NCBI GenBank assembly: GCA_015657475.1
Contig: JADLKF010000009.1
Location: 402,502-443,256, forward strand
DNA: 40,755 nucleotides
Direction: 5' to 3'
Source of the DNA: Lentimicrobiaceae bacterium
Lineage (GTDB): Bacteria; Bacteroidota; Bacteroidia; Bacteroidales; UBA4417
The translations under genes and the position numbers were made by a program. Below are positions 33,022 to 35,645 of the stretch, piece by piece; the first letter of the stretch is position 1; each line of letters starts with the position of its first letter. The notes under the pieces were generated by a model. It was not told the origin of the DNA, ran no database searches, and was given only the letters and a program-made list of their open reading frames with translations.

Positions 33022-33101
33022 TAAAAACATAACAGGCCCTGGTTCCGGCAGTTTCTGATACGGAATTGCGATTGTCCGGGCATGAGAACAACTACCAGAT
33101 T

Positions 33102-33683
33102 ATGAGCCGGAATTATATACAGGACAAGACTTTCAGCAGGATTGACTTCGTGCTTTCACCCTTTGAAGTTGCTGAATATGAGAACTGTATTTTCGATAAC
33201 TGTAACTTTTCCGGATGTGATCTGTCGGAAATGAGGTTTGTGGAGTGTGAATTTAAAGCTTGCAACCTGAGCCTGGCAAAACTCAATAAAACGGCATTAA
33301 GGGATGTCAAATTCAAAGATTGCAAGTTGCTGGGCCTGAGGTTTGAGTCTTGCCATGAATTCGGCCTTTCGTTCTCATTTGACCGGTGCATACTTAATCA
33401 CGCTTCGTTTTATAAGAATAAAATCAAAGGGACAATTTTCAAAAATTCCCAGCTCCTGGAAACCGATCTGGCTGAATGTGATCTGTCGAATGCCGTTTTC
33501 GACAATTGCGACCTTGCGGGTGCCATTTTTGACCATACCAATCTTGAGAAAGCTGATTTCAGGTCCTCGTTCAATTATACAATCGACCCGGATACCAACA
33601 GGATCAGGAAGGCAAAATTTTCGCTGCCAGGTGTTACAGGCCTTTTGCATAAATACGACATCGAAATTGATAACGGTTTTTAA
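33102..33683 (+). CDS. pentapeptide-repeat protein
   Basis: A 193-residue protein built of A(D/N)LxX-like repeats that would form a right-handed quadrilateral beta-helix. Examples in order: CIFDNCNFSGCDLSEMRF, ECEFKACNLSLAKLN, then DLAECDLSNAVFDNCDLAGA and NLEKADFRSSF. The centre (around SFSFDRCILN) breaks the regular spacing, giving two coils. The layout resembles Qnr/McbG-type proteins that protect DNA gyrase, but that function cannot be inferred from repeats alone. The start MSRNYIQDKTF at ATG 33102 is chosen; a TTG at 33066 would add 12 residues. The C-terminal 20 residues are non-repeat. Confidence 0.85.
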   Translation: MSRNYIQDKTFSRIDFVLSPFEVAEYENCIFDNCNFSGCDLSEMRFVECEFKACNLSLAKLNKTALRDVKFKDCKLLGLRFESCHEFGLSFSFDRCILNHASFYKNKIKGTIFKNSQLLETDLAECDLSNAVFDNCDLAGAIFDHTNLEKADFRSSFNYTIDPDTNRIRKAKFSLPGVTGLLHKYDIEIDNGF

Positions 33684-33721: not shown

Positions 33722-34537
33722 CTATTTCAGTTTACTTTTCAGAATTTCGGTTTTTTGTTTTCCGCTCAGGTTCGGTTTATAGTCATATAACGGTTTCTCC
33801 CAGGCCCCGTATATAGGATTTGGCAATACGATGAACCGTTTGCCGAACAACTCTTTGTTTTCTTCAACTGCTGCTTTGCCATTGTCGGTTTTACGGTCTT
33901 CAAACAATTCTGAGAAATCGTTGAGGTTGTCTCCAAGCAGTAAGACGATTTCATGGGTGGATGAAACCTTAGCTCTGCGGCCGGCTTTTGAACTGGTGTT
34001 ACCGCTTGAATATGCAGTATCGTTGCGTGTAAGCAAATGACTTTCATCTGCAAAAGGAAATCCTTCTGCTTGAAGGTTCTTCAGCGTCGAAGCCCTTTCA
34101 TTATCATCGCGGTTGGTTATGTAAAACACCTCGGCATGTTGTTGCTGAACATACCGGGCAAAATCCACAGCGCCAGGCAATGCTTTGGCTTCAGCTTTAT
34201 CAGTCCAGCCGATCCATCCATTGCGGTCTTCACCTTCAGTGATAACATGGGTTTCATAAGGGCTGTTATCGAGCATGGTTTCGTCAATATCGACAACCAC
34301 GGCCAGCGGTTTATTTTGTGTGTTGTTCTTCACAGCTTCATCGAACCTTAGTGTGGCAACGTTAAAAGCCTGGTAGCATAATGCCTGCATTTCGCCGGAA
34401 TTCTGGTACCATGCTACAGACATCAACAGGTAATCGTGATTGTCAGGAAGCTGAGCCTGTGGTTTGGTAACCACGCAGCCCGATAAGCCAAGGGTTATCG
34501 CTATCAGGGCAATGAATATTAATCGGTGTGTTTTCAT
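33722..34537 (-). CDS. 5'-nucleotidase/acid phosphatase, lipoprotein e(P4) family
   Basis: A 271-residue class C acid phosphatase of the HAD superfamily. The lipobox is LGLSGC with Cys21, so it is probably anchored on the outer face of a membrane. HAD motifs are VVVDIDETMLD (Asp83 nucleophile, Asp85 acid/base), YITNRDD (motif II region) and LLLGDNLNDF (motif III/IV acidic pair). In Haemophilus, e(P4) releases nucleosides and nicotinamide riboside from phosphorylated precursors; a similar scavenging role is likely. The start is set at ATG 34537; the frame remains open upstream only because it reads through the heptanucleotide repeat. It converges with the pentapeptide-repeat gene. Confidence 0.92.
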   Translation of the reverse strand: MKTHRLIFIALIAITLGLSGCVVTKPQAQLPDNHDYLLMSVAWYQNSGEMQALCYQAFNVATLRFDEAVKNNTQNKPLAVVVDIDETMLDNSPYETHVITEGEDRNGWIGWTDKAEAKALPGAVDFARYVQQQHAEVFYITNRDDNERASTLKNLQAEGFPFADESHLLTRNDTAYSSGNTSSKAGRRAKVSSTHEIVLLLGDNLNDFSELFEDRKTDNGKAAVEENKELFGKRFIVLPNPIYGAWEKPLYDYKPNLSGKQKTEILKSKLK

Positions 34538-34538
34538 A

Positions 34539-34636
34539 ATGGACAATGGAGAATTGACAATGGATAATGGACAATGGACAATGGGTAATTGACAATTGAC
34601 AATTGACAATTGACAATTGACAATGGACAATGGATT
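34539..34636. repeat. heptanucleotide tandem repeat, 14 copies
   Basis: Fourteen consecutive 7-bp units with consensus ATTGACA/ATGGACA; five consecutive ATTGACA units (34588-34622) are identical. The array ends one base before the start codon of the e(P4) gene, so it is its leader region. Copy number is likely to vary by slippage. Confidence 0.95.
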
Positions 34637-34661
34637 GTAGAATGTTTGTTTCTAACAATGT

Positions 34662-34669
34662 CAAAAGTA
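34662..34669 (-). promoter_or_regulatory. possible -7 box of the e(P4) gene, upstream of the heptad array
   Basis: The minus strand reads TACTTTTG, a TAnnTTTG match. Transcription from here would place the whole repeat array in the 5' leader. No -33 box identified. Confidence 0.35.
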
Positions 34670-34806
34670 AACAATAGGCGATTTTGTTTAGGAAAATGAT
34701 AAGGATTTAACGATTGCTTAATGCTTAGCAGGACATCCTGAATGGAACAAAAACAGTTCGGAGCTATGATAATACGGATTTACTTTTTAGCATAAGATGA
34801 GTTTAG

Positions 34807-34814
34807 TAAGTTTG
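34807..34814 (+). promoter_or_regulatory. -7 box (TAAGTTTG) before the creatininase-family gene
   Basis: TAnnTTTG followed by T, 63 bp before ATG 34878. It lies inside a longer frame that could start at 34797, which argues for the later start. Confidence 0.4.
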
Positions 34815-34877
34815 TACAGTCAAAACATGATACCGGCAGATCAGATACCTGATAGCAGCTTTAATTATTCCGAAACA

Positions 34878-35645
34878 ATGAGACCTTATATCCTGGCAGA
34901 AACAAACTGGAAGACAGTTAAAAATGAAAAGTTTGAACTGGCAGTTTTGCCCTGGGGGGCTACCGAAGCACACAATTACCACCTGCCATATGGAAGCGAT
35001 ATTATTGAAGCGGAGTATCTTGCAGCCGAATCAGCCAGGGTCGCCTGGGAAATGGGAGGGAAGGTCGTTGTTCTGCCTACAATTCCTTTTGGTGTAAACA
35101 CCGGGCAGTCGGATATTTATCTGGATATGAATCTCAATCCCGGCACTCAGGCCATGATCCTGCATGATATAGTTGAAGTGCTTAACAGGCAGGGAATCCA
35201 CAAGCTGATGATATTCAACAGCCACGGAGGCAATGATTTCAAACCTTTTGTCCGGGAACTCGGACTGAAATTTCCTGATATGTTTATTTGCATTTCGAAC
35301 TGGTACCAGGCGCCTGAACGAGAAGTTTATTTCGAGAATCCCGGTGACCATGCTGATGAGATTGAAACCAGCCTGATGCTCTACCTGAAGCCGGAACTGG
35401 TTCTGGCTAAAGATTCATGGGGTGAAGGCAATGAGAAGAAATTCAGAATAAAGGCTTTAAGAGAAAACTGGCTTTGGGCCGAACGTAAGTGGTCAAAGAT
35501 TTCGGAAGATACAGGCGTGGGAAATCCCAGACTTGCTGACAGAGAAAAAGGTGAAAGGTATTTTAAGGCACTGAATGCCAAAATCGGCGAAGTAATGTTT
35601 GAATTGTGCAAGGCCGATATCAATGACCTATACGAACGGCAATGA
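34878..35645 (+). CDS. creatininase family amidohydrolase
   Basis: A 255-residue metal-dependent amide hydrolase of the creatininase/FAPy-deformylase fold. The metal-binding block LPWGATEAHNYHLPYGSD holds Glu30, His32 and Asp41; a second block is FNSHGGND and a third is GDHADEIETS, with the conserved Glu. The substrate is not creatinine for certain; relatives act on diverse cyclic amides or formamides. The start MRPYILAETNW (ATG 34878) is preferred because a promoter box lies at 34807 and the extension from ATG 34797 (27 residues) is not family-like; ATG 34827 is also possible. It stands alone, converging with the gene at 35695. Confidence 0.85.
   Translation: MRPYILAETNWKTVKNEKFELAVLPWGATEAHNYHLPYGSDIIEAEYLAAESARVAWEMGGKVVVLPTIPFGVNTGQSDIYLDMNLNPGTQAMILHDIVEVLNRQGIHKLMIFNSHGGNDFKPFVRELGLKFPDMFICISNWYQAPEREVYFENPGDHADEIETSLMLYLKPELVLAKDSWGEGNEKKFRIKALRENWLWAERKWSKISEDTGVGNPRLADREKGERYFKALNAKIGEVMFELCKADINDLYERQ

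What the first reader, a model, noticed from the sequence alone, without database searches (positions are those of the whole stretch)
34537..34669. 14-copy heptanucleotide repeat directly abutting the e(P4) phosphatase start codon
The array occupies the whole immediate leader, and its units allow slippage by 7 bp, which would change the distance from promoter to start and the accessibility of the start codon. Every third unit restores the frame, and the array stays open through to 34630 in the gene's frame, so an alternative N-terminal extension of repeating SIVNCQL is also possible. This could be a phase-variable expression switch; similar arrays of unknown role are frequent in Bacteroidota (from memory).
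Basis: partly seen in the sequence, partly recalled or inferred. Interest (0 to 1): 0.55.

Follow-up and report, generated by a model that had tools for sequence, protein, structure and literature searches.

The report
Dispersed heptamer repeat in phosphatase leader
A run of 7-base repeats fills the stretch just before the start codon of a phosphatase gene, but dozens of similar runs are scattered through this Bacteroidota genome, so it looks like a lineage-specific repeat that settled in a gene leader rather than a purpose-built on/off switch.

Summary
The array is real: window 34538-34634, 13.9 heptamer units, ending at the ATG of an e(P4)-family phosphatase (TIGR01533), far beyond chance (7-periodicity score 42; best of 200 shuffles 12). 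It is not specific to this gene. The same heptamer, GA[C/A/T]AAT[T/G], forms at least 34 other blocks in the genome, 24 of all 35 with a stop codon and 11 with a start codon at their 5' side. None of nine distinct orthologous leaders has it. Five of those nine have a TAnnTTTG promoter box 36-50 nt before the ATG, four do not; the window's lies 124 nt away with the array between. So the array probably lengthens the 5' leader. Its leader strand has no ATG or stop, is open in all frames and folds no better than chance: no classical frame switch. Graded tuning by copy number is possible but untested. Wider result: arrays point away from genes (30 of 35 blocks), and in another genus of the order pairs are strictly convergent (233 register hits against 0), some in frame inside carB, metH and trpF.

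The parts
34538..34634 (+). heptamer array, consensus GA[C/A/T]AAT[T/G] on the + strand (AATTGTC/CATTGTC on the gene's strand), 13.9 units
   Evidence: TRF; unit parse; shuffles
33722..34537 (-). e(P4)-family acid phosphatase / 5'-nucleotidase lipoprotein gene; ATG at 34537; signal peptide MKTHRLIFIALIAITLGLSGC follows the ATG
   Evidence: PF03767; TIGR01533; translation (lipobox read by eye)
34662..34669 (-). TACTTTTG, match to the Bacteroidota -7 promoter box TAnnTTTG, 124 nt before the ATG
   Evidence: consensus as quoted in PMC7366714 (passages)
34635..34661 (-). unique sequence between the likely promoter box and the array
   Evidence: sequence
34878..35645 (+). divergent gene of the creatininase family; the GACAATT strand points towards it, 245 nt away
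   Evidence: PF02633 (hit on the longer ORF 34797-35645); start from my own gene finder; distance

Best explanation
The array is one copy of a dispersed, lineage-specific heptamer repeat (here GA[C/A/T]AAT[T/G]) that arose or landed in the 5' leader of the phosphatase gene, between its likely promoter and the start codon, and grew there, most likely by slipped-strand replication. Shown: presence, many sister copies in the genome, absence from nine orthologous leaders. Supported by motif only: position downstream of a promoter box. Inferred: growth by slippage, and that this orientation survives next to a start codon because on the leader strand the repeat carries no ATG and no stop, whereas the other strand is full of both. 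Its main effect would be a leader longer by roughly 75-90 nt, with perhaps incidental, graded sensitivity of expression to unit number. It is not a dedicated switch.
For: Own genome: 90 matches to four units at up to 3 mismatches, 0 in the reversed control; 143 matches to three units at up to 1 mismatch, 0 in control. Of 35 blocks at the loci I fetched, 24 have a stop codon and 11 a start codon as the gene edge on their 5' side. Orthologues: 7 of 15 congeners have a homologue; with two named contigs (L009, L011) these give nine distinct leaders, no pair of genes over 95% identical, none with an array in 400 nt (341 for L021) by a permissive scan. G014, G010, G011 and G002 carry 26, 72, 4 and 2 three-unit hits elsewhere. 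TAnnTTTG lies at 36-50 nt in 5 of 9 orthologues, against 4.8% of shuffles of seven of these leaders; the window's lies at 124 nt. Codon content of the G000 arrays in 2807 nt: 247 stops and 174 ATG on the GACAATT strand, 34 and 2 on the other.
Against: Slippage at this locus is not shown: no reads, strains or second genome of the species. The promoter box is a motif match; no TTTG lies near -33 in the window (the only other TTTG listed is at 210 nt), and four of nine orthologues lack the box. Plain slippage does not explain why arrays in distant genera share one consensus, nor why in another genus pairs are always convergent. Nine G000 blocks run at their 3' end into other shared sequences, which suggests that some copies travel as composite elements rather than arising in place.
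Confidence: 0.6

Rival explanations
1. Phase-variable or graded (rheostat) control: slippage changes unit number, hence leader length and start-codon accessibility, tuning the phosphatase as 7-bp repeats tune the HMW adhesins of Haemophilus influenzae.
For: Array lies between the likely promoter box and the ATG; four adjacent exact GACAATT units would suit slippage; precedent that more 7-bp repeats upstream of hmw1A/hmw2A generally go with less expression (PMC10127715, passages).
Against: Absent from nine orthologous leaders; same repeat at many unrelated places, 24 of 35 blocks with a stop codon at their 5' side; 86% unit match, so interrupted; no frame effect possible; leader fold not unusual, z = 0.22.
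Confidence: 0.15
2. Composite or mobile palindromic element: heptamer arrays are arms of small dispersed elements (array plus 3' palindrome; in another genus array, core, inverted array), and the window array is a one-armed copy.
For: P46 palindrome: 19 hits in the genome, all within loci fetched for their arrays, flanked by heptamers where read; nine blocks end in GATCCCGATAGC-like or GGCGGTAGC-like sequence; 233 convergent against 0 divergent register hits in 31 genomes; the same core twice inside one gene, L114, in differing protein contexts as read by eye.
Against: Window array has no such sequence at its 3' end and no inverted partner in the window; cores mostly unrelated between loci; in G461 the three copies that share a core also share 370-420 bp of sequence around it, so they look like duplicated loci rather than transposition; Y1 transposase (PF01797) in 3 of 11 array-rich and 4 of 20 other genomes of that genus, Fisher p 0.68.
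Confidence: 0.16
3. Outward promoter: the + strand array reads TTGACA-17-GACAAT repeatedly and could drive the divergent creatininase-family gene.
For: 7 sigma-70-like hits in 34400-35000 against 2.0 expected.
Against: Follows trivially from the heptamer sequence; the housekeeping promoter of Bacteroides is TAnnTTTG / TTTG (PMC7366714, passages).
Confidence: 0.03

Closest known systems
TAACTGA direct repeats of marine Beggiatoaceae, cyanobacteria and five Bacteroidetes (MacGregor 2015, PMC4679880; abstract, passages, sections 9 and 12 seen)
   Same: Heptamer direct repeats, mostly intergenic and dispersed, in some genomes right next to start codons; in two Bacteroidetes the close relatives' intergenic regions lack them; strand choice linked to stop codons. 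TAACTGA in another register is GATAACT, which differs from GACAATT at two positions and fits a wider consensus GANAAYK.
   Different: C at position 6 is rare here (4 of 401 units); here the stop-free strand reads towards the start codon, whereas TAACTGA reads forward to it; long mixed-unit arrays with palindromes in between.
7-bp repeats upstream of hmw1A/hmw2A in Haemophilus influenzae (PMC10127715, passages)
   Same: 7-bp tandem repeat in the region upstream of a gene.
   Different: Those repeats vary in number and control surface adhesins, with expression generally falling as copies rise; variation and effect are unknown here, and this repeat is genome-wide.
Short tandemly repeated repetitive sequences (STRR) of cyanobacteria (recalled; seen only as terms in a search listing)
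   Same: Heptamer arrays dispersed in intergenic DNA (recalled).
   Different: Other phylum and other unit sequences (recalled).
Rickettsia palindromic elements (recalled) and coding palindromes of nematomorph mitochondria (PMC6649704, start of abstract in the listing)
   Same: Inverted repeats kept inside protein genes; comparable to the convergent pairs in carB, metH and trpF of the other genus.
   Different: Those pairs are made of heptamer arrays with variable cores; the window array is single-armed and outside the gene.

Membership tests
Phase-variable simple-sequence contingency locus | Copy number varies between isolates or reads | not testable with these tools
   One genome per species is held; no reads
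Phase-variable simple-sequence contingency locus | Unit change alters reading frame | tested here: not met
   No stop or ATG on the leader strand of the array; all frames open through it
Phase-variable simple-sequence contingency locus | Unit change alters promoter spacing | tested here: inconclusive
   Array lies downstream of the likely -7 box, but the promoter is a motif match only
Phase-variable simple-sequence contingency locus | Repeat kept at the same gene in relatives | tested here: not met
   0 of 9 distinct orthologous leaders
Phase-variable simple-sequence contingency locus | Unit number changes expression | not testable with these tools
   Needs reporters
TAACTGA heptamer repeats | Unit is TAACTGA | tested here: not met
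   Units are GACAATT/G, GAAAATT/G and others; 401 units tabulated
TAACTGA heptamer repeats | Direct repeats, mainly intergenic, dispersed in the genome | tested here: met
   35 blocks placed against predicted genes; 90 hits against 0 in control
TAACTGA heptamer repeats | Forward orientation within a few nt upstream of a start codon | tested here: not met
   Array ends at the ATG but in the opposite sense; in 24 of 35 blocks the 5' edge is a stop codon
REP/RAYT-type palindromes | Linked to a Y1 (REP-associated) transposase | tested here: not met
   Tested in the other genus only, not in G000: PF01797 in 3 of 11 array-rich and 4 of 20 other genomes
REP/RAYT-type palindromes | Compact palindrome of 20-40 bp | tested here: not met
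   Window array is a direct repeat whose leader folds no better than shuffles
e(P4) phosphatase (host gene) | Scores above the TIGR01533 cut-off | tested here: met
   277 bits against 216

The most novel reading that the evidence does not exclude
The arrays are the trace of a polar DNA process in Bacteroidota that lays GACAATT-type heptamers 5'-to-3' outward from gene edges, by templated addition at broken or processed ends or as arms of a small palindromic element. It leaves single outward arrays (as at the phosphatase) or strictly convergent hairpin pairs, and is tolerated even in frame inside core metabolic genes such as carB and trpF.
Probability: 0.12. Interest if true: 0.85.

Novelty: new variant of a known kind. 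Interest (0 to 1): 0.45.

Why it matters
Such arrays next to start codons invite a gene-by-gene reading as phase variation; here the genome-wide view shows a dispersed repeat with strong polarity. If the polarity reflects how the repeats are made and not only selection against stops and ATGs, it points to a repeat-generating process in Bacteroidota that I did not find described (nine searches, named under Tried and rejected). The in-frame hairpin in carB, present in six of 28 loci compared while 21 have a plain shorter loop, makes that process testable by comparing species.

Tried and rejected
Frame-based translational switch: rejected, since a heptamer reads alike in all frames and this strand has no stop or ATG. 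Alternative N-terminal extension of SIVNCQL repeats: open but unlikely, since a signal peptide with a lipobox starts at the ATG, and seven of nine orthologues begin with a similar peptide ending in Cys (L018 and L020 have a signal-like start without it, read by eye). RNA structure in the leader: none beyond chance, z = 0.22; the carB hairpin of the other genus does fold, z = -6.9. sigma-70 promoter reading: follows trivially from the unit. REP/RAYT dispersal: no association with PF01797 in the other genus. Codon selection as the whole cause of polarity: not rejected; it explains intergenic cases well, and less well the convergent pairs inside genes (four gene loci: L068, L069, L070, L114). Literature: nine searches. 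No listed title or abstract start was about GACAATT-type arrays; four heptamer spellings searched as whole words gave six papers, by title on animals or plants; one search gave none. Most subscription papers are not in that library. A telomerase-like or reverse-transcriptase origin was considered but not tested.

Limits of the counts. The 35 blocks come from places listed; the list was cut at 100, and at least two further places (C6:256026, C15:297847) were not fetched. Gene edges come from my own simple gene finder, not from annotation. In the count of 16 against 0, an overlap of up to 39 nt counts as touching; one block (L045 2496, overlap 64) was therefore left out. The 233 convergent hits count overlapping registers of the same sites; the divergent pattern had 26 fixed positions against 28. 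In an earlier script L018 was read on the wrong strand; one search corrects this. 'Array-rich' means 18 or more three-unit hits (11 genomes; the others have 7 or fewer).

Full report
What is there. The window holds a heptamer array at 34538-34634, 13.9 units, 86% matches, no indels. Ten of the 13 full units after the start codon are exact GACAATT or GACAATG. No shuffle of the window approaches it: 7-periodicity score 42 against a maximum of 12 in 200. On the other strand it runs straight into the ATG (34537) of an e(P4)-family phosphatase. The gene begins with a lipoprotein-type signal peptide at that ATG, so the ATG is very likely the true start.

Where it sits in the transcription unit. In five of nine orthologues a TAnnTTTG box lies 36-50 nt before the ATG; in shuffles of seven of these leaders this happened in 4.8%. 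L018, L020, L022 and L033 lack it. For the first seven the binomial p is about 5e-6; for five of nine, by hand from the same rate, about 3e-5. The window has TACTTTTG at 34662-34669, 124 nt before the ATG, with the array between. TAnnTTTG is the -7 consensus deduced in Bacteroides fragilis and confirmed in Flavobacterium johnsoniae; the median 5' leader in B. thetaiotaomicron is 32 nt, and 13.5% exceed 100 nt (PMC7366714, passages). I therefore place the array in the 5' leader and estimate that the leader grew by about 75-90 nt. Slippage would then change leader length, not promoter spacing. This is motif evidence, not a mapped start.

It is one of many. Four-unit matches number 90 in the genome, against 0 for the reversed pattern. 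Among 401 parsed units the consensus is G-A-[C/A/T]-A-A-T-[T/G]. Eight of 16 genomes of the genus, the window's own included, hold three-unit arrays, as do 22 of 31 of another genus in the order, and 14 of 395 across the phylum hold four-unit arrays. TAACTGA, the published heptamer of Beggiatoaceae, cyanobacteria and a few Bacteroidetes (PMC4679880), is GATAACT in another register and fits a wider consensus GANAAYK. Whether this is shared descent is not tested.

It is not conserved at this gene. Seven of 15 congeners have a homologue. With L009 and L011 I had nine distinct leaders, no two genes over 95% identical; a permissive scan of 400 nt (341 for L021) found no array in any, in agreement with the stricter scan of the whole loci. 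Four of these genomes (G014, G010, G011, G002) carry the heptamer elsewhere. This argues against a maintained function at this gene.

Polarity. At the loci I fetched, 35 blocks could be placed against predicted gene edges. Reading GACAATT 5' to 3', the 5' end is nearer a gene edge in 30 of 35. It lies within 10 nt of, or overlaps, an edge in 16, against 0 for the 3' end (binomial p 3e-5; Wilcoxon p 1e-5). The 5' edge is a stop codon in 24 and a start codon in 11. Part of this is expected: the GACAATT strand has 247 stops and 174 ATGs in 2807 nt, the other strand 34 and 2. So a sense array overlapping a gene end makes its own stop, and the antisense strand is the less harmful one before a start. 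MacGregor made the argument about stops for TAACTGA. The window fits this: its leader strand has no stop and no ATG.

The other genus. In the genus of G387, two-unit arrays facing each other 12-42 nt apart give 233 forward register hits in 15 of 31 genomes; the divergent arrangement gives 0 in 31. Among the pairs read in G387, eleven lie between predicted genes (L065, L066, L067, L108, L109, L110, L112, L113, L115, L116, L126), two overlap a predicted gene in part (L111, L117), and four loci have them inside long open frames: metH (L068), carB (L069), trpF (L070) and a PD-(D/E)XK nuclease gene (L114, two copies with one core); murC (L071) has a single arm. Aligned with solved relatives, the carB and trpF inserts fall in alignment gaps or poorly matched stretches. 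In carB, six of the 28 loci compared (L078-L083) carry the hairpin at one place, L097 has an unrelated insert there, and 21 have a plain shorter loop. In L082 both arms show a changed unit (GACAGT / ACTGTC), which looks like co-variation, but this is one case. The carB hairpin folds far better than shuffles (z = -6.9); the window leader does not (z = 0.22).

Judgement. The switch reading has no positive support, and lack of conservation, position and reading frame weaken it, though tuning by leader length remains possible on the model of the H. influenzae hmw repeats (PMC10127715). The best reading is a lineage-specific dispersed heptamer repeat tolerated in a leader because of its orientation. 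The wider polarity is the more interesting matter; codon selection explains much of it, and whether a polar generating process is also needed is open.

Noticed in passing
L053 3061-3477, L045, L046, L047, L048, L052, L064 (G000): A palindromic element of about 46 bp (GGTGAAGGCTTGTGTGTTAGGGGCAGGTG core) alternates with heptamer arrays; 19 genome hits at up to 3 mismatches, all within loci fetched for their arrays.
   Followed up: partly
3' ends of blocks in L043, L046, L053, L058, L062 and in L051, L052, L054, L060 (G000): Arrays run into a shared GATCCCGATAGC...TTCGGGA-like palindrome (five blocks) or a GGCGGTAGCGGCGGG-like sequence (four blocks).
   Followed up: no
   Followed up: partly
L114 705-3632 (G387): Two heptamer hairpins with the same core (peptide NEESDDKLSIVN) at two places in one PD-(D/E)XK nuclease gene.
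   Followed up: no
L036 310-1566 (G089): Heptamer array translated near the N-terminus, in what looks like a signal peptide (AIVNCQLSIAQ), of a 418-residue predicted protein.
   Followed up: no
L051 3140-3440 (G000 C6): Longest array parsed: 43 units of GACAATG/GAAAATG, grading into GGAGAAC-type heptamers.
   Followed up: no
window 33066-33683: Pentapeptide-repeat protein next to the phosphatase.
   Followed up: no
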